Positions 1 through 38,260 of a DNA stretch of 38,260 bases are shown piece after piece. Position numbers and translations under genes: made by a program. The stretch spans positions 1 through 38,260 of the forward strand of contig JACUTW010000018.1 of assembly GCA_014859605.1 (NCBI GenBank), in the 5' to 3' direction. The stretch's first letter is position 1. Every line of letters begins with the position of its first letter. The notes beneath the pieces are model-generated. The model did no database searches and was not told the origin of the DNA. It saw nothing but the letters and a program-made list of their open reading frames with translations. Source of the DNA: Desulfuromonadales bacterium (GTDB lineage Bacteria > Desulfobacterota > Desulfuromonadia > Desulfuromonadales > UBA2197).

Positions 1-792
1 ATTGTGCAGAATATTGTCGTCCCTGCCGCCGGCATCGGCACCCTGTGGTCGGGAGGCGAAGATGATCTTAAGGCTGGTCCGGTCTTTGGTGCCTATACTT
101 CTTACGAAGAAGAGCCACTGCCAATTCCGGTCCGTCCCGCTAAGGAGACCAGCGAAGTCGAAGCTGCGCCGGTCCTGATTTTGCCACCGCCGATTTCAAA
201 AGAAGTCCCGGTCATCATTCCTCAAAGTGAGGAGACTCCTGCTGCCGTTCCGCCCCTTGAGCCCGCGCCGGTACTGCCAGAGGCCGCCGGCACTATTTCC
301 CCGGTCGTTAGCGAGGAGGCTATAACGGCACCACCCGCCGAACTTATCCAGCTGCCGAGCTTTGAGATCCCTCCGGCCGGCGATGGCTCCTTGCTCCTCT
401 TTGGTCCCAGCCAGATCAGTGTCGGGGATGTCATTAATGTTGCGATTAGCGGACAGGAATTAAATGGCCTCTTCAGCGCCCCTTTATTTGTTACTTACGA
501 TCAAAATCTCTTTGATCTGCTGAGTGTGGCGGAAGGGGACTTTTTGAGTCGGGAAGGGAAGACAACGGTCTTCAGCACTAACCCGATTCCCGGTAAAGGG
601 GAGTTGATGATCGGCTACAAGCAGGGTGTCGGGGGGAGCGGAGTCTCTGGGGACGGAACCCTCTTCACCGTCACCTTTCGGGCAAAAGCGCCGGGGACTG
701 CAGCGTTTTCCGTCGATCGGCTGAATCTCCGCAATGCCGCCGGGCAGCGATTAAAAATCGTGGCAACCCCTTTGGCGGTCGAGGTAAAATAA
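1..792 (+). CDS. Cohesin-domain protein, C-terminal part (5' end outside window)
   Basis: The reading frame is open at the left edge, so this is the C-terminal end of a longer protein; the GTG at 4 need not be its start. Three parts are visible: a short N-terminal stretch, a proline/glutamate/valine-rich linker (about residues 35-120), and a C-terminal beta-rich domain (about 130-262) starting near FGPSQISVGDVINVAISG and ending FSVDRLNLRN...VEVK, which has the pattern of a cohesin domain. Two pseudopilin genes follow at once. In Geobacter-like bacteria, secretin proteins of type II secretion-like systems can carry a C-terminal cohesin domain, so this is probably the end of such a protein or of an associated surface component. 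No secretin signature is visible in the part present, so the secretin link is inference. Confidence 0.6.
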   Translation: MVQNIVVPAAGIGTLWSGGEDDLKAGPVFGAYTSYEEEPLPIPVRPAKETSEVEAAPVLILPPPISKEVPVIIPQSEETPAAVPPLEPAPVLPEAAGTISPVVSEEAITAPPAELIQLPSFEIPPAGDGSLLLFGPSQISVGDVINVAISGQELNGLFSAPLFVTYDQNLFDLLSVAEGDFLSREGKTTVFSTNPIPGKGELMIGYKQGVGGSGVSGDGTLFTVTFRAKAPGTAAFSVDRLNLRNAAGQRLKIVATPLAVEVK

Positions 793-21596: not shown

Positions 21597-24059
21597 ATGC
21601 GAGATTTCATGAGCAAAGATGATCAAGGACTGAATAGACCGAGACGTGGATCTTTCCTGGTGTGCCTGGCCTTGCTGTTGATGCTTGTCGGACTGCCCGC
21701 CGGCGTCTCTTTCGCTGCCTCCAACATTGCGCAGGAGCAGGCCGTTTCTCTGGCGCGCGCCGGGGAGTTCAACGAGGCACTGGCGATTCTCGGCGATCTC
21801 CATCAGCAGTCTCCCGACAACCAGGCAGTCGCTTATGATTACCTGTCCGTGTTGGGTTGGGCAGGCCGTGATGGGGAGGTAGTGACTTTCGCCGAGGGTC
21901 TGACGCTCGATTTGGCGCCGGCTTATGTGCTGGAGGCCGTCGGCAAAGCCCTGCGCAACACGCAGCGATTTAAGGAAGCGACCGCCCTGTATGGCAGGGC
22001 GTTGGCGCGCTTCCCTGCCCATCGCGATTTCATCGAGGGGCATGTTTATGCTCTCGGCGAAGCGGGCGACTTCGCGGCGGCTGATGAGCGCATCGCGCGG
22101 CTGCGCGCGCAATATCCCCGTGAACTCTGGCCGCTGCGCCTTGATGCCTATGTGGCGGCTCTGCGTGGTGATGACCTGGCTGTGCTCGACCGTAACCAGC
22201 GTATTCTGACGCTGGCCCCTGAGGACTCCGCTGCCTTGCGCGGGCGCATCCTCGCCCTTGAAGCCCTGGGCGCCACCCATCGCGCGCAAGTGTATGCAGA
22301 GCAACACCCCCATCTCTTGAGTCGCGAAGAACGGTTGCGTTTGCAAACCGGAAGCGCCGCCCAACAGGTACGATGGGGGAGCCTGGAACCCGAGTCAGAA
22401 GAGATGCGCTTTGCCGAAACCGATCGGGCCCTGGCGCTGATTGAAAAGAATCTGGCTGGCCTCGATGCCAAGGATCCAGTCGAGCGCTCCTTTGTTTTTC
22501 AGGCGCGCTTTGATCGAGTGGTGGCGCTGCGCGACCGGGTGCGTATGGCCGAGGCTATCGCTGAATACGAAAGCCTGGCCGACGAAGGTATTTCTCCTCC
22601 GCCCTATGCACTGCAGGCCGCCGCCGAGGCCTATCTGTACCTGCAAAAACCTGAGGTGGCGCGCGATCTCTACCTGCGGGTGCTCGCCGAAGAGCCTCAG
22701 AACTTTGAAGCCGGCCTTGGTCTCTTCTACGCCTACATCGAAACGGAGGATTTCCCCAGAGCCTACAACCTGATCGATCGAATGCAGGCCAAACAGCCGG
22801 TGTGGCGCCAAGGGCGCGGCGTCGGCGCTAATCGCGAACGGCTCGACGTGGATGTCTTCGCCGGTTTAGCGCGGGTGTTAGCTGATGATTTGACCGAAGG
22901 GCAGCGACGTTTTAAAACCATGCACGCCACCGCGCCGCACAACCCCGATCTGGTGCGCGAGTTAGCCAATATTTACGGCGCACGAGGCTGGCCGCGCCTG
23001 GCCCAACAGACCTACGCCGATGGGCTCGTCATCGCGCCCGGCCATCCCGGTCTACAAATGGGACATGCCGCCACGCGTCTCGATCTGCGCGAATACGACG
23101 AAGCCCAAAGCGAAATCGCCGATCTTTACCGTCGCTTTCCCGAAAACCGTCAGGTACAGCGACTACAGCTTCTGTGGGATATCCACGAACTGCGCGAACT
23201 GCGCGCCGAAGCCGCCTACGCTGACAGCAGCGGTGCCGAACCTTCCAGCCAGGAACTGCGCCTGAGCAGCACTCTGTTCTCCTCGCCCTTTCTCACCCAC
23301 TACCGAGCCTTCATTTCCGGCTTCTGGAGTCGGGCCGATTTCCCCGAAGGCCGGGGCATCTACCAGCGTTACGGGGGTGGTTTGGAATATCGCGGTCGCG
23401 ACCTGATCGCCAGTCTGGCGGCCAGCGCCAATCATAGTGACGGCAGCGATCTTGGTCTGGCCTTCTCCGGAACTTGGTATCGCGACGATCACTGGTCATT
23501 TCCCTTTGCCCTTGAAATGTTCAGCGCCGATACGCCGCTGCGCGCCCTGCGCAATGGCGTCGACGCTGATGCCGCGCGGCTGGGGGTTGATTATCGCCAA
23601 AGCGAACTGCGCAGCATGGGCTTGGGCGGGCAAGCCATGGATTTCAGCGACGGCAACCAGACTGGCCGCGTGAGCGCCTACTGGCGTGAGCGCCTGGTGA
23701 CCAGGCCCCATTACAAGCTCGATGGCGTGGTGGATCTCTACGCGTCAACCAATCGGCGCGACGATGTTCCCTATTTCAGCCCCAAGCAGGATTTTTCCGC
23801 CGAACTGACCCTCGACAACGACTGGCTGCTATATCGGCGCTACAGTCGCACCTTCGGTCATCGCCTGGCGCTGTCGGGTGGCGGTTACTGGCAGAAGGGT
23901 TTTGGCGCCAATCCGGTAGCGGCCATACTTTACGAACACAACTGGCAAGCGGATTATCGCTTCAGTCTCAGCTACGGCGCGGTGCTGAGCCGCCGCGTCT
24001 ATGACGGCGACGGCGAAACGGGTGTCGAGTATTATCTGCGCCTGGGTTGGAGATTCTGA
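21597..24059 (+). CDS. pgaA: Poly-beta-1,6-N-acetylglucosamine export porin PgaA
   Basis: 820 aa, the expected length. A signal peptide (about residues 17-41, FLVCLALLLMLVGLPAGVSFAA) is followed by a long helical repeat region of TPR type (about 45-530; e.g. EQAVSLARAGEFNEALAILG, RDLYLRVLAEEPQNFEAGLG). The C-terminal part (about 550-820) is an aromatic, alternating outer-membrane beta-barrel ending YYLRLGWRF with the terminal Phe typical of BAM substrates. PgaA carries partially deacetylated PNAG across the outer membrane. pgaB, pgaC and pgaD follow with overlapping stops and starts. ATG 21597 or the in-frame ATG 21609 may be used. Confidence 0.93.
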   Translation: MRDFMSKDDQGLNRPRRGSFLVCLALLLMLVGLPAGVSFAASNIAQEQAVSLARAGEFNEALAILGDLHQQSPDNQAVAYDYLSVLGWAGRDGEVVTFAEGLTLDLAPAYVLEAVGKALRNTQRFKEATALYGRALARFPAHRDFIEGHVYALGEAGDFAAADERIARLRAQYPRELWPLRLDAYVAALRGDDLAVLDRNQRILTLAPEDSAALRGRILALEALGATHRAQVYAEQHPHLLSREERLRLQTGSAAQQVRWGSLEPESEEMRFAETDRALALIEKNLAGLDAKDPVERSFVFQARFDRVVALRDRVRMAEAIAEYESLADEGISPPPYALQAAAEAYLYLQKPEVARDLYLRVLAEEPQNFEAGLGLFYAYIETEDFPRAYNLIDRMQAKQPVWRQGRGVGANRERLDVDVFAGLARVLADDLTEGQRRFKTMHATAPHNPDLVRELANIYGARGWPRLAQQTYADGLVIAPGHPGLQMGHAATRLDLREYDEAQSEIADLYRRFPENRQVQRLQLLWDIHELRELRAEAAYADSSGAEPSSQELRLSSTLFSSPFLTHYRAFISGFWSRADFPEGRGIYQRYGGGLEYRGRDLIASLAASANHSDGSDLGLAFSGTWYRDDHWSFPFALEMFSADTPLRALRNGVDADAARLGVDYRQSELRSMGLGGQAMDFSDGNQTGRVSAYWRERLVTRPHYKLDGVVDLYASTNRRDDVPYFSPKQDFSAELTLDNDWLLYRRYSRTFGHRLALSGGGYWQKGFGANPVAAILYEHNWQADYRFSLSYGAVLSRRVYDGDGETGVEYYLRLGWRF

Positions 24060-25993
24060 TGATGCGGATTAAAATTGTTATCTTGTTGCTCCTACTGCTG
24101 AGCGCACTTTCCCCTACCCCGGCCCGCGCCTTCGTTGCCTTATGCTATCACGATGTGCAGGACGTAGTGGACGATCCCGACGGCATGGCGGTATCGCGTG
24201 ATAACCTCGTTGCCCATTTCAGCTGGCTGCGCGAGAACGGCTATACGCCGGTGAGCATCGATGCTTTGCTGGCGGCGCAGCGTGGCGAGCGGCCCTTGCC
24301 GGACAAAGCGGTGCTGCTGACTTTTGATGACGGCTATACGAGTTTTTATACCAAGGTCCTTCCCTTGCTCAAAGCCTTCAATTACCCGGCCGTTCTGGCC
24401 CTGGTCGGCAGCTGGCTCGAAGTCCCGGCGACGGGGCAGGTCGCCTACGGTGACTCTCTGGTGCCACGCGAGCGCTTCATGAACTGGGAACAGATTCGCG
24501 AGGTCGCCGCCTCGGGCCTGGTGGAAATCAGTTCACACAGCTACGACCTGCACCGTGGTATTCCGGCCAATCCCCAGGGCAACGTTCAGCCGGCCATGAC
24601 CACGCGGCGCTATGACGCCGCCAGCGGTCGTTATGAAATGGACGAAGTCTACTTAAAGCGTCTGCGCGCTGATTTAGCACGGAACTCCGCCTTGCTCCAG
24701 AAGCAGCTTGGCAATAAGCCGCGCGTCATGGTCTGGCCTTACGGTGAATACAATCGCCACGCGCAGGAATTGGCTATGGAAGCCGGTATGCCCATCACCC
24801 TCACCCTGGATGTGGGCAAGAACAATCCTCAAGAGCTCGGCGCAGTGCGTCGGGTGCTGATTCTTGACAACCCGCCGCTCGCCGACTTTGTCTGGCAGAT
24901 GCGTAATCCCCAGTGGCAAAGGCCGCGGCCGATCCGGGTCGTGCATGTCGATCTTGACTATGTGTACGACTCCGATCCCTCGCAGCAAGAAACCAACCTT
25001 GGCCTGCTGCTTGACCGTATTCAGAAACTCGGCGTCAACACTGTCTATCTACAGGCCTTTGCCGATCCTGACGGCGACGGAGTGGCTGATGCCCTCTATT
25101 TCCCCAACCGTCATCTCCCCCTGCGCGCCGATCTCTTCAACCGCGTGGCCTGGCAGTTGCGGGTGCGTACCGGGGTGCAGGTTTATGCCTGGATGCCGGT
25201 TCTAGCCTTCACCCTCGGCGATGAAGCCGATCAGGTGCTGGCCTGGGCTGCGGACAACAGGGTGGCGCCCGATCCTCACCAGTATCGCCGCCTGTCGCCT
25301 TTTTCACCGCGCGCCAGACAATTGGCCTCAGAGCTTTACGAAGATCTGGCCAAGCATGCCGCCTTTGCCGGGGTGCTGTTTCACGACGATGCATTGCTCT
25401 CTGATTTCGAGGATGCAAACCCTGCCGCCCTGACCGCTTATCAGGCGGCCGGACTGCCCGGCGACATCGGCGCCATCCGTACCGATGAGGCGCACAAACG
25501 CGTCTGGACGCGTTTGAAAAGTGAGGCGTTGCATGATTTTACCGCCCATCTCGCCGAGCGGGTGCGCACCTGGCGGCCCGCCGTCAAGACGGCGCGAAAT
25601 CTCTATGCCCGTCCGGTGCTGGAAAGGGACAGCGAGGCCTGGTTCGCCCAGAGCCTGCCGCGTTTTCTTGAGAAGTATGATTACACCGCCGTCATGGCCA
25701 TGCCCTACATGGAAGGAGCTGAAGATCCCGATATCTGGCTGCGCACCATCGTCCAGAGCGTCGCCGAGGTCCCCGGCGGCTTGGACAAGACGGTCTTTGA
25801 GCTGCAAAGCGTCGACTGGCGCAAGAATAACGAAGCCATCCCCGGCAGCTTTCTGGCGCGGCAGATGCGTCTGCTGGCTCGCGAGGGCGCCCGACATTAC
25901 GGTTATTATCCCGACAATTTCTTCCACAACCAGCCGCGGGCGGAGGATTTGATGCCGATCATGTCCTTGCGCACCTACCCCTATCTGCCATGA
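24059..25993 (+). CDS. pgaB: PNAG N-deacetylase / glycoside hydrolase PgaB
   Basis: 644 aa from ATG 24059, which shares one base with the pgaA stop (TGATG). Signal peptide MMRIKIVILLLLLLSALSPT plus PARA, with no lipobox Cys, so unlike E. coli PgaB it may be a soluble periplasmic protein. The deacetylase domain (about 25-280) has YHDV (H31, D32), TFDDGY (D90, D91) and SSHSYDLH (H160, H165) as metal and catalytic residues. The C-terminal domain (about 290-644) has VDLDYVYDSDPSQQETN, TVYLQAFADPDGDGVADA and FHDDALLSDFED, as in PgaB hydrolase domains. It deacetylates PNAG so that PgaA can export it. Confidence 0.95.
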   Translation: MMRIKIVILLLLLLSALSPTPARAFVALCYHDVQDVVDDPDGMAVSRDNLVAHFSWLRENGYTPVSIDALLAAQRGERPLPDKAVLLTFDDGYTSFYTKVLPLLKAFNYPAVLALVGSWLEVPATGQVAYGDSLVPRERFMNWEQIREVAASGLVEISSHSYDLHRGIPANPQGNVQPAMTTRRYDAASGRYEMDEVYLKRLRADLARNSALLQKQLGNKPRVMVWPYGEYNRHAQELAMEAGMPITLTLDVGKNNPQELGAVRRVLILDNPPLADFVWQMRNPQWQRPRPIRVVHVDLDYVYDSDPSQQETNLGLLLDRIQKLGVNTVYLQAFADPDGDGVADALYFPNRHLPLRADLFNRVAWQLRVRTGVQVYAWMPVLAFTLGDEADQVLAWAADNRVAPDPHQYRRLSPFSPRARQLASELYEDLAKHAAFAGVLFHDDALLSDFEDANPAALTAYQAAGLPGDIGAIRTDEAHKRVWTRLKSEALHDFTAHLAERVRTWRPAVKTARNLYARPVLERDSEAWFAQSLPRFLEKYDYTAVMAMPYMEGAEDPDIWLRTIVQSVAEVPGGLDKTVFELQSVDWRKNNEAIPGSFLARQMRLLAREGARHYGYYPDNFFHNQPRAEDLMPIMSLRTYPYLP

Positions 25994-27276
25994 TGCTCAC
26001 CTATCTCGAACAGGTCCGAGGCGCGCTACTGCCCTTTTTATTTTTCTATCCGCTGTTCATGGCCTATTTTTGGATGATCGGCGCGATTTATTACTATTGG
26101 CGCCACGAGCGCAACCAGGGCGGCTACCAGAACGAACCCAAACTACGCGAATATCCCGGCGTGTCTCTAGTGGTTCCCTGCCACAACGAGGGCGACAACG
26201 TGCGCGAAACGATTGCCGCCCTCCTCAACCAGACCTATCCCGACTTCGACATCATCGCCGTCAATGACGGCAGCAATGACGACACGGGGTCAATCCTCGA
26301 CGAGTTGGCCGAGCAGCATCCGCGCCTGCGCGTGCTGCACTTCACCCAGAATCAGGGCAAGGCCATGGGGCTGCGCATGGCGGCCCTGTCGTCACCCCAC
26401 GAGTTTTTAATCTGCATCGACGGTGACGCCTTGCTCGATCCTCACGCCACCACCTGGATCATGAGTCACTTCGTCAACGGCGCGCGGGTCGGCGCAGTGA
26501 CCGGCAATCCGCGCATCCGCAACCGCTCGACTTTGCTCGGCAAGGTGCAGGTCGGCGAATTTTCGGCGATCATCGGCATGATCAAGCGCGCCCAGCGCAT
26601 CTACGGACGCGTCTTTACTGTTTCGGGAGTGGTATCTGGTTTTCGTAAATCGGCACTGCACGAGGTGGGCTTCTGGAGCCTCGACAAGGTGACCGAGGAT
26701 ATCGACATCAGCTGGAAACTTCAGCTCAATTACCAGGACATCCGCTTTGAGCCCAACGCCCTGTGCTGGATTCTCATGCCCGAGACACTGCGCGGTCTGT
26801 GGAAGCAGCGTCTGCGTTGGGCGCAGGGCGGCTACGAGGTGCTGTTCGCCAATCTCGGCGGCCTGTTCAACTGGAAAAAGCGGCGCATGTGGCCGGTGGT
26901 TCTCGAATTCGCCGTCAGTGTCATCTGGAGCTACAGCATGCTGGCAGTGGCGGGGCTCTGGATCCTGAGTTTTTTCATGCCCCTGCCCGAATATCTGGAA
27001 CTGCCTTCCATGTTGCCGCATTGGCCCGGGGTGGTGCTTGGACTGACCTGTCTGCTGCAATTCGCGGTGAGCTTGGGTATTGATTCACGCTACGAGCAGG
27101 GATTGGGACGCAGCTATTACTGGATGATCTGGTATCCCCTGGCTTTCTGGTTGATCAATCTGTTCGCCTCCATCGTCGGGCTGCCCAAAGCCCTGTTCAA
27201 ACCCCGTGGACGCCGCGCCACCTGGGTCAGTCCCGATCGCGGCGTCGCTCAAAGCGAAGAAGGAGTCGCCCCATGA
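25990..27276 (+). CDS. pgaC: Poly-N-acetylglucosamine synthase PgaC (GT2)
   Basis: 428 aa; ATG 25990 overlaps the pgaB stop by 4 nt (ATGA). A membrane segment (about 13-36) precedes the GT2 domain: SLVVPCHNEGDNV, AVNDGSNDDTG (D93), CIDGDALLD (DGD 144-146), VTEDIDISWK with the catalytic-base Asp, and QRLRWAQGG (QxxRW). Three or more C-terminal membrane segments follow (AVSVIWSYSMLAVAGLWILS; GVVLGLTCLLQFAVSLG; PLAFWLINLFASIVGLP). It polymerises UDP-GlcNAc and needs PgaD. In E. coli PgaCD is activated by c-di-GMP; no c-di-GMP enzyme is encoded nearby. Confidence 0.96.
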   Translation: MMLTYLEQVRGALLPFLFFYPLFMAYFWMIGAIYYYWRHERNQGGYQNEPKLREYPGVSLVVPCHNEGDNVRETIAALLNQTYPDFDIIAVNDGSNDDTGSILDELAEQHPRLRVLHFTQNQGKAMGLRMAALSSPHEFLICIDGDALLDPHATTWIMSHFVNGARVGAVTGNPRIRNRSTLLGKVQVGEFSAIIGMIKRAQRIYGRVFTVSGVVSGFRKSALHEVGFWSLDKVTEDIDISWKLQLNYQDIRFEPNALCWILMPETLRGLWKQRLRWAQGGYEVLFANLGGLFNWKKRRMWPVVLEFAVSVIWSYSMLAVAGLWILSFFMPLPEYLELPSMLPHWPGVVLGLTCLLQFAVSLGIDSRYEQGLGRSYYWMIWYPLAFWLINLFASIVGLPKALFKPRGRRATWVSPDRGVAQSEEGVAP

Positions 27277-27713
27277 AGTCGCCCATCATCGAAAACCCCA
27301 AGGGCGCCTCGCGATTGCAGCGCTATAGTCAGGGAGTGCTGACCGGCATATTCTGGGTGCTTCTCGGATTGCTGCTGTGGCCGCTATTCACTTTCGGCAC
27401 CTGGCTGCAAGGTAGTCATCCCGACTTCCTGACGATATTACGCTTCGATGGTCTCGGCAGTTTATTTCGCGTGCCCTTTGTGTACTTTTTAGTGGTAGCG
27501 CTCATCGGGGTGGTATTGATCGGGTGGTCCAGCTACAATCTGCTGCGCTTTCGCCATAACGAGCGGCGTACACGGCAGCCCGATGCCTTGACGCCGGCGC
27601 AACTGGCGGGATTTTTCGGCGTGGAGGAGGAGCAGGTGCGGCACTGGCAGACCAGTCGCCGCATCGTCATGAGCCATGATGAGCAGGGTCGGCCGAGGCC
27701 GGAAGAGGGCTGA
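27273..27713 (+). CDS. pgaD: PNAG biosynthesis accessory protein PgaD
   Basis: 146 aa; the start overlaps the pgaC stop by 4 nt. Two membrane segments (about 22-48, VLTGIFWVLLGLLLWPLFTF; about 68-92, VPFVYFLVVALIGVVLIGW) are followed by a cytoplasmic tail with LTPAQLAGFFGVEEEQVRHW and IVMSHDEQG, the usual PgaD layout. It stabilises and activates PgaC and helps form the c-di-GMP-binding site in E. coli. It completes a four-gene pgaABCD operon. A 52-nt gap with no convincing terminator separates it from the convergent rlmD. Confidence 0.9.
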   Translation: MKSPIIENPKGASRLQRYSQGVLTGIFWVLLGLLLWPLFTFGTWLQGSHPDFLTILRFDGLGSLFRVPFVYFLVVALIGVVLIGWSSYNLLRFRHNERRTRQPDALTPAQLAGFFGVEEEQVRHWQTSRRIVMSHDEQGRPRPEEG

Positions 27714-35125: not shown

Positions 35126-37822
35126 TTAACCTTGCCCGCAGCATTTTTTATACTTCTTGCCACTGCCACAGGGACACATTTCATTGCGTCCGACTTTATC
35201 CTCATCGCGAGTGACCGGGCGCGGCGCAGCCTCTTCATCGGCACCGCTGAGGTCGCGCAGGGTAGCGCGGTTGCGCTCCAACTCTTCCGCTTCCATCTGG
35301 GCGACATCCTCCTCGTGCACCAGTTGCACAAAGAAGAGCTTCGACACCACTTCCTGCCGGATGCGCTGCATCAGATCCATAAAGAGGCTGTACGCTTCTT
35401 TTTTGTATTCTTCCTTGGGGTTCTTCTGCGCATAACCGCGCAGGCCGATCCCTTCCTTGAGATGGTCGATGGAAAGGAGATGATCTTTCCACTGCCCGTC
35501 GATCGCCTGCAGCAGGAGAATTTTCATCAACTGATCCATCACCGGCGTGGTGAAATCGGCTTCCTTCTCTTGGAAACGATTGTTGACCGCTACCTGCAAT
35601 GCTTCGATCATCTCTGGGGGAGTTTGTACCGTCGGGAGTTGTGGGCGGAAGCAGAAGAGTGTGTAACACTCGTCGGCTAAGACATCGAGATCCCAATGCT
35701 GGGCATGCCCCTTGACTGCCGGGGGGCAATGCGAGGAAACGAGATTGTCGATGGTTTCGTCGATGATCGATTGAAAAATTTCGCGAACACCTTCGCCGGC
35801 AAGAACTTCTTTGCGCTGCGAATAGATGACCTCGCGCTGCTTGTTCATGACGTCATCATAATCGATGAGATGTTTACGAATCTCGTAGTTATGAGCTTCG
35901 ACCTTCTTCTGGGCATTTTCAATCGCCTTGGAGATCATGCCGTGCTCAATCGGCTCATTTTCGGGGATACGCAGTTTATCCATAATGAAGGCGACACGAT
36001 GCGAACCGAAGATGCGGAGCAGGTCGTCTTCGAGGGAGAGATAAAAACGACTCTCACCGGGGTCGCCCTGTCGTCCGGAGCGGCCGCGCAACTGGTTGTC
36101 GATCCGTCGTGACTCATGACGCTCGGTACCGCAGATGTAGAGCCCGCCGGCCGCGAGCACTTCTTCCCTCTCCTTGGCACAAAGGATCTGGCATTTTTCA
36201 AGAAGTTCGCTACGTACCTCTTCGCTATCGGCCACCCCGGCGGCCAGATGTTTTGCCATCATCTCGGCATTGCCGCCCAAGACGATGTCAGTACCACGAC
36301 CGGCCATATTGGTGGCGATGGTGACCGCCCCCTTGCGGCCGGCCTGGGCAACAATCTCCGCTTCGCGATCATGATGCTTGGCATTGAGAACCGAGTGCGG
36401 CACCCCTTTTTCGCGCAACATCTTTGCCAGAGTTTCAGACTTTTCAATGGAGATAGTACCGACCAGTGACGGCTGCCCTTTGGCGTGGCGCTCGACTACA
36501 TCAGCGACCACGGCGTTAAATTTTTCCCGCTCGGTCTTATAGATGACATCCGACTGATCGATACGAATCATCGGGCGATTGGTCGGCACGACCGACACCC
36601 CCAACTTGTAGATTTCGTTGAATTCCGTCGCTTCGGTATCGGCGGTACCGGTCATCCCTGCGAGTTTTTTATACATACGGAAGTAATTCTGGAAAGTGAT
36701 CGTCGCCAGTGTCTGATTTTCACTCTCGATCTTCACCCCTTCTTTTGCTTCGATAGCCTGGTGCAAACCGTCACTCCAGCGTCGGCCCGGCATCATGCGG
36801 CCGGTGAATTCATCGACAATCACTATCTCGCCTTCGTTGACCACATAATCGACATCGCGGCGGAAGAGGGCGTGGGCGCGCAGCGCCTGCTTGGCATGGT
36901 GAAGGATTTCGTTGTTCTGCAAATCATACAAGTTGGTAATCCCGAGCAACTGCTCAACCTTAAGGAGCCCTTGTTCAGTAAACTCAGCATTTTTGGCTTT
37001 TTCATCGATGGTGTAGTCGCCGGTATATTCTTTACTCGACAAACCGATCTTGCCATCCCGGTGTTCGATCATCTCCCCTTTGACCAGTTTCGGGATGATC
37101 TTGTCGACGGTGTAATAATGGTTGCTCGACCCCTCGCTCGGCCCGGAGATGATCAACGGCGTCCGCGCTTCATCGATGAGGATCGAGTCGACCTCATCGA
37201 CGATGGCGAAGCTGAGATCCCGCTGTACATAATCATCGAGAGAAAACTTCATGTTATCGCGCAGATAGTCAAAACCGAGCTCATTATTGGTGCAGTAAGT
37301 GATATCGCAGGCGTAAGCGGCCTTACGTTCGGCGTCGCTGAGTCCGTGGACAATCACCCCGACACTCAAACCGAGAAAGCGATGGATATCCCCCATCCAT
37401 TCCGAGTCACGCCGTGCCAGATAATCGTTGACCGTAACGATATGGACACTCTGACCACTCAGGGCATTGAGGTAAGCCGGCAGGGTCGAGACCAGAGTCT
37501 TCCCTTCGCCAGTCTTCATCTCGGCGATCTTCCCCTGGTGCAAAACCATGCCGCCGATCAGCTGGGTATCAAAATGTCGCAACCCCAGCACCCGGCGCCC
37601 GGCTTCGCGCACCACCGCAAAGGCTTCGGGGAGGAGTGCGTCAAGGGCTTCCCCTTTAGTCAGGCGGCCGCGAAATTCATCGGTCTTGCTGCGCAGTTGC
37701 TCATCAGAGAGGGCGACTATTTTCGCTTCCAAAGCGTTGATCTGATCAACCAGGGGTTGCAACCGCTTCAACTCACGCTCGCTCTGGCTGCCAAAAACTT
37801 TTTTCAGGATATTACCAAGCAT
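35126..37822 (-). CDS. secA: Preprotein translocase ATPase SecA
   Basis: 898 aa from the ATG at 37822; GGAG 6 nt upstream favours it over the ATG at 37834. Motor domain: MKTGEGKT (Walker A, 102-109), [20 protein letters not shown] (DEAD-box region), [24 protein letters not shown] and [20 protein letters not shown] (NBD2). Helical wing and scaffold domains follow. The C-terminal tail is complete: [16 protein letters not shown], a zinc-binding SEC-C motif for SecB and phospholipid contact. It drives protein export through SecYEG. The upstream 93 nt hold no clear sigma70 pair. A reverse-transcriptase fragment starts divergently within 51 nt. Confidence 0.98.
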
Positions 37823-37872
37823 ATCAGGCTCCATCGATGGTCTATTTTGAAGTTACAGGGCGCGCATACTAA

Positions 37873-38260
37873 CACAAGGAGCATCCCCCCTCAAGGGTAA
37901 AGGGGAAAGGAAAAAGTGACGAAAATGATGGCGACGCACATGATGGCGTCCTGTCGCCCACAGTTAAAGCAATAAAGCAAGAACCGGCCTGCCGCTTTCA
38001 CGCCTTTTATGACAAGGTCTACCGGGCCGACATCCTTGGTCATGCCTATGCCCTTGTCCGTGCCAACAAAGGGAGCGCCGGGATCGACGGCGTCACCTTC
38101 GCGGCCATCGAGGAGAACGAAGGGGCACCTGCATTCATTGGGGAGTTGGAAGAGGCACTAAGAAACAAGACGTATCAACCCGATCCGGTCAAACGGGTCA
38201 TGATACCGAAAGCGGATGGCAGTCAGCGCCCTCTCGGTATTCCGACCATCCGGGACCGGG
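37873..38260 (+). pseudogene. ltrA: Group II intron-type reverse transcriptase, N-terminal part; no start codon in frame, truncated by window end
   Basis: The frame from 37873 (after a TAA at 37870-37872) stays open to the right edge. From about 37981 it encodes EPACRFHAFYDKVYRADILG, then ANKGSAGIDGVTF and YQPDPVKRVMIPKADGSQ followed by RPLGIPTIRDR, the RT0-RT1 motifs of group II intron (LtrA-type) reverse transcriptases. No ATG, GTG or TTG occurs in this frame before a TTG at 38146, inside the conserved domain. In another frame, GTG 37916 with GAAAGG 5 nt upstream gives 19 codons and then stops at 37973. The ORF is therefore frameshifted, 5'-truncated, or started at a non-standard codon. The usual several hundred bases of intron RNA before the ORF cannot fit, because secA begins only 51 nt away. 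Confidence 0.8.

What the first reader, a model, noticed from the sequence alone, without database searches (positions are those of the whole stretch)
37873..38260. Group II-type reverse transcriptase with no start codon and no intron 5' region beside secA
The RT0-RT1 region is intact, yet its frame has no ATG/GTG/TTG before position 38146. A GTG with a good ribosome-binding site (37916) lies in a different frame and hits a stop after 19 codons. Ribozyme domains I-III of a group II intron normally take several hundred bases before the ORF, but only about 100-150 nt separate the RT domain from secA. Either this is a decayed, 5'-truncated retroelement, or an RT that has lost its ribozyme (domesticated or group II-like), or its start needs frameshifting or a rare codon.
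Basis: partly seen in the sequence, partly recalled or inferred. Interest (0 to 1): 0.6.

Follow-up and report, generated by a model that had tools for sequence, protein, structure and literature searches.

The report
Broken-off group II intron beside secA
The stretch is the 3' part of an ordinary bacterial group II intron whose front end (most of the ribozyme and the first 20 codons of its protein) is missing, so it is a dead fragment of a common mobile element and not a new kind of reverse transcriptase.

Summary
In detail: frame 37873-38259 is open, has no ATG/GTG/TTG before 38146, and encodes the start of a group II intron RT (TIGR04416, E 4.6e-24) only 140 nt from secA. Relatives explain it. 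Six close copies in the same order (83-91% DNA identity) belong to standard group II introns with RF02005 ribozyme domains ahead of the ORF; the best-preserved ones also have a proper start codon, RVT_1 + GIIM, and domain V/VI. The window matches them abruptly from 37975, codon 21 of the intron protein; about 555 nt of the intron's 5' end are missing. The window is a whole contig that stops inside the element. A second contig of the same genome (C63) begins with the last 87 nt of the same intron lineage, including a complete domain V/VI, and continues into the genes that lie directly upstream of secA in two congeneric genomes. So one 5'-truncated intron sits there, with about 1 kb of its middle unassembled. 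No domains I-III were found elsewhere in the assembly. dN/dS against the nearest relative is 0.075, so the loss is probably recent. Incomplete reverse transcription is slightly favoured over later deletion, but not shown. Truncated bacterial group II introns are common. Low interest.

The parts
37975..38260 (+). Codons 21-115 of a group II intron-encoded protein (start of the RT domain), 5'-truncated; runs off the contig end
   Evidence: TIGR04416 E 4.6e-24; 91% DNA identity over 286 nt to complete intron L010 starting exactly here; dN 0.030, dS 0.395 against L010
37906..37974 (.). Strain-specific 69-nt flank between secA's conserved upstream region and the truncated intron; source of the GTG 37916 mini-frame; no significant homology to the intron, to congeners or elsewhere in the genome
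37835..37905 (.). secA upstream region, conserved in two congeneric genomes (88-92% DNA identity); the clear genus-level alignment ends at 37905
35126..37834 (-). secA, intact (902 aa), divergent from the intron fragment
   Evidence: Pfam SecA domains; 89% aa identity to congeners over its first 200 aa

Best explanation
This is a 5'-truncated copy of a standard mobile group II intron lineage of Desulfuromonadales, inserted between secA and a CxxCxxCC-protein gene. About 555 nt are gone from the 5' end: roughly 495 nt of ribozyme (domains I-III and the 5' part of IV) and the first 20 codons of the RT/maturase. Shown: the sharp homology edge at 37975; the complete 3' end (domain V/VI) on contig C63, which borders the same chromosomal interval; no domain I-III elsewhere in the assembly. 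Inferred: the roughly 993-nt middle is present but unassembled; the copy cannot splice or move by itself, because it lacks domain I with its exon-binding sites, and its protein has no start codon. It probably arose when target-primed reverse transcription, which copies from the intron's 3' end, stopped early. Later deletion of the 5' part is nearly as likely.
For: Six relatives with 83-91% DNA identity match only from 37975. All six have RF02005 D1-D4 ahead of the ORF; L010, L011 and L013 also have RF00029 at the 3' end at gathering score. The L010 protein carries RVT_1 + GIIM. A full-intron search of the window's genome finds only two real pieces, C102:37975-38260 (91%) and C63:1-87 (94%, the intron 3' end). 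C63:12-85 scores 57 bits for RF00029 over the full model and shares with L010 a short domain VI, where most other copies have a longer one. C63 from 1697 on is about 86-91% identical and collinear, in the right orientation, with DNA directly upstream of secA in G001 and G002. Low dN/dS (0.075) and no stop in 95 codons point to recent loss. Literature: most bacterial copies are truncated or inactivated (PMC4424553); 5'-truncated copies tentatively attributed to incomplete reverse transcription are described (PMC7923331).
Against: The middle of the element is not in the assembly, so continuity of C102 and C63 across the intron rests on synteny, not on reads. That the join at 37974/37975 is real, rather than an assembly error, also rests on indirect arguments. 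The 5'-exon test meant to favour incomplete reverse transcription was inconclusive: only one of 34 copies (L013) has its best placement at the junction. Internal deletions in related copies (L101, L107) show that deletion is a live alternative for how the 5' part was lost.
Confidence: 0.93

Rival explanations
1. A full-length intron inserted here and its 5' part (and perhaps some flank) was later deleted, rather than being cut short during reverse transcription. The end product is the same dead fragment, so this rivals only the last step of the best explanation.
For: Related copies in other genomes have internal deletions: L101 lacks about 430 nt, L107 (same family) is reduced to three pieces. 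Fragments with large deletions are described in Thermosynechococcus (PMC2882425).
Against: The lost part is the 5' side with the 3' end complete, the pattern expected of incomplete reverse transcription; no residue of the 5' ribozyme remains at the left edge.
Confidence: 0.4
2. Assembly artefact: the intron here is full-length and the assembler wrongly skipped about 555 nt at 37974/37975.
For: The contig ends inside a mobile element most of which is missing from the rest of the assembly, a typical place for errors.
Against: The two sides of the junction share no more than a 7-nt stretch (AAAGCAA), too little for a usual misjoin; C63 independently places the intron's 3' end at the same locus; the 5' 555 nt is found on no contig.
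Confidence: 0.05
3. A domesticated or group II-like RT that has lost its ribozyme and works for the host.
For: No ribozyme 5' region next to it; coding sequence under purifying selection on average (dN/dS 0.075).
Against: The nearest relatives are introns with ribozymes; this copy keeps domain V/VI downstream; no start codon; absent from two congeners at this locus. The low dN/dS is explained by the history before truncation.
Confidence: 0.02

Closest known systems
Complete group II intron at L010 (G024, same order), RF02005-type domains I-IV, RT + maturase protein
   Same: 91% DNA identity over the RT start, 94% over the 3' end, same short domain VI form
   Different: L010 is complete (about 1.9 kb, start codon, ribozyme at both ends); the window copy lacks the 5' 555 nt
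5'-truncated introns UHB.F1 and H.ha.F1/F2 (PMC7923331)
   Same: Only the 3' part remains, start of the RT lost; H.ha.F1/F2 lie in toxin-antitoxin cassettes, and incomplete reverse transcription is proposed for them
   Different: Those are in integron or CALIN cassettes with attC-like sites; no attC core pair was found here
Thermosynechococcus elongatus fragments TeI3g and TeI3m (PMC2882425)
   Same: Lack everything upstream of a point in the ORF or in domain IV
   Different: Full-length siblings are in the same genome; here no other copy is in the assembly

Membership tests
Mobile group II intron | RT of the group II class | tested here: met
   TIGR04416 E 4.6e-24 for the fragment; the curated whole-protein cut-off cannot be reached with only 95 codons present
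Mobile group II intron | Catalytic domain V (and VI) at the 3' end | tested here: met
   RF00029, 57 bits, full model, at C63:12-85, which lies at the same locus by synteny
Mobile group II intron | Domains I-III with exon-binding sites before the ORF | tested here: not met
   No Rfam match in 37200-38260 and no DNA match to the relatives' 5' part anywhere in the assembly
Mobile group II intron | Intact ORF with start codon, YADD and maturase domain | tested here: not met
   Start and first 20 codons absent; YADD and GIIM lie in the unassembled middle and could not be read here
Group II intron fragment (5'-truncated) | Sequence collinear with a complete intron from an internal point to the 3' end | tested here: inconclusive
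   Both ends of the expected stretch are present and in order (L010 reversed 1504-1789 on C102, 2783-2869 on C63); about 993 nt between them not assembled
Group II-like (ribozyme-free) RT | No group II ribozyme parts associated | tested here: not met
   Domain V/VI present at the 3' end
Trans-splicing split intron | Missing domains encoded elsewhere in the genome | tested here: not met
   Only two pieces of the intron in the assembly, neither being domains I-III; the assembly is incomplete, so absence is not final

The most novel reading that the evidence does not exclude
The truncated copy is still translated from a non-standard start (CTG 37951 or ATA 37972), and the resulting N-terminally altered RT acts in trans or for the host.
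Probability: 0.01. Interest if true: 0.45.

Novelty: new member of a known kind. Interest (0 to 1): 0.08.

Why it matters
Little beyond annotation: an automatic gene caller would leave it unannotated or call a false partial RT. It is one more example of apparently recent decay of a bacterial group II intron, with intron-free alleles in two congeners that bound the insertion to an interval of roughly 60 nt in their genomes.

Tried and rejected
(1) RVT_1 search of the own genome: no match, because only about the first 19 residues of that domain are in the contig. (2) L074 seemed to match from residue 7, suggesting a conserved N-terminal extension; on inspection the DNA match starts at the same 37975 point and L074 has the normal intron start. 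(3) Test whether the sequence left of the junction is the intron's 5' exon: last 16 nt of 34 copies with a readable 5' end placed on 37835-38000; only L013 (11 of 16) has its best placement at the junction, others scatter; EBS-IBS pairings were not consistent. Inconclusive. (4) Search for a pre-insertion site that holds the strain-specific right flank (C63:86-1700) in 136 genomes of the order: only parts of it match, mostly the CarboxypepD_reg gene region, and no intron-free version of the junction was seen. (5) attC core pairs around the insertion: none. (6) Sigma-70 and terminator scans between secA and the intron: none over threshold.

Full report
Observation. The window is one complete contig, G000:C102, 38,260 bases, of a 2.76-Mb genome in 153 contigs. 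The finding lies at its right end. The + frame from 37873 to 38259 is open; its first ATG, GTG or TTG is TTG 38146. The GTG at 37916 is in another frame and ends after 19 codons. The translated fragment matches the start of TIGR04416, group II intron RT/maturase, E 4.6e-24, profile positions 3-76 of 353. Pfam gives nothing, because RVT_1 starts at residue 125 of the complete 474-residue open frame of relative L010, so the contig holds only about its first 19 residues. Rfam finds no group II RNA in the window.

What it is. A search of 58 genomes found relatives in 26; the best six have 80-94% amino-acid identity. All six (L010-L015) have RF02005 group-II-D1D4-6 ahead of the RT, and L010, L011 and L013 have RF00029 domain V/VI after it at gathering score; L014 and L015 are interrupted or deleted copies. 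Their ORFs begin as M-(L or S)... and continue as ...RKAKQEPACRFHALYDKVYRADIL. DNA similarity between the window and all six starts at the same base, 37975 (AAGCAAGAACC), which is codon 21 of that ORF. A named-genome search found 44 loci; most match from the same residue. One apparent exception, L074, proved to be a chance protein extension. In L010 the intron runs from about 949 to 2869 of the reversed locus; the window has 1504-1789 of it. So about 555 nt are missing at the 5' end: about 495 nt of RNA domains and 60 nt of coding sequence.

The other end. Searching the whole own genome with the L010 intron gave just two real matches: C102:37975-38260 (91%) and C63:1-87 (94%). C63 begins with the intron's 3' end; RF00029 matches C63:12-85 over the full model with 57 bits. 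C63 and L010 share a short domain VI, whereas most other copies have a longer one. Behind the intron end and 1.6 kb of strain-specific DNA, C63 carries the genes that lie upstream of secA in two congeners: C63:1697-6378 aligns at 86% to G002, and C63:1697-4240 in pieces at 86-91% to G001; in G002 this block stops about 130 bases before the secA start. Window 37500-37905 aligns with the same two contigs on the secA side (81-82%). Orientation and order agree for both the genes and the intron. Therefore C102 and C63 flank one interval, and the intron fragment lies in it, with about 993 nt of its middle unassembled. In place of all this, congener G002 has about 57 nt.

How it works, or no longer works. 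Domain I carries the exon-binding sites and is needed for splicing and target recognition (established knowledge of group II introns); it is absent here and was found nowhere else in the assembly. The protein has no usable start. The copy is thus inferred to be dead. The coding fragment has dN 0.030 and dS 0.395 to L010 and no stop, so most of its history was under selection and the loss is probably recent. Changes placed on the window's own branch are 3 non-synonymous and 4 synonymous, too few to test. For the cause, incomplete target-primed reverse transcription gives a complete 3' end and a cut 5' end, as seen; but deletions occur in kin copies L101 and L107, and the 5'-exon test did not settle it. 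I put about 55% on truncated insertion and about 40% on later deletion.

Comparison. [quoted passage not shown] Fragments that keep only the 3' part are described in Thermosynechococcus (PMC2882425), and 5'-truncated introns, some in toxin-antitoxin cassettes and tentatively attributed to incomplete reverse transcription, in halophiles (PMC7923331). Enterobacteriales genomes hold 55 distinct fragmented copies among 135 distinct copies (PMC3522654). The solved structures nearest to the L010 protein are group II intron RT/maturases (7uim, GsI-IIC 6ar1). The window's element is one more ordinary fragment. Verdict: well explained, low interest.

Noticed in passing
L065 (G000:C63) 134-653, minus strand: A ParE toxin gene (PF05016, 134-409) with a preceding small ORF (399-653) that looks like a ParD-type antitoxin lies directly behind the intron's 3' end; this stretch is absent from congeners at this place.
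   Followed up: partly
L065 (G000:C63) 85-130: The 3' flank of the intron repeats the word CTGTTCAA three times; L010's 3' flank also has a repeated word (GGAACTCC) and the same GTCCCC. May be a target feature of this lineage.
   Followed up: no
L107 (same contig as L067, G003:C127) 38-432: Desulfuromonadales bacterium GWC2_61_20, same family as the window's genome, holds a remnant of the same intron lineage reduced to three pieces by internal deletions.
   Followed up: partly
L014 about 2264-2441: The RT ORF is broken just after YADD, and a second group II intron of another type (RF01999) begins there: a nested arrangement.
   Followed up: no
window 21597-27713: Genes like pgaA (PgaA_barrel) and pgaB (polysaccharide deacetylase + GHL13), followed by two more ORFs in series: a likely poly-N-acetylglucosamine operon.
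   Followed up: no
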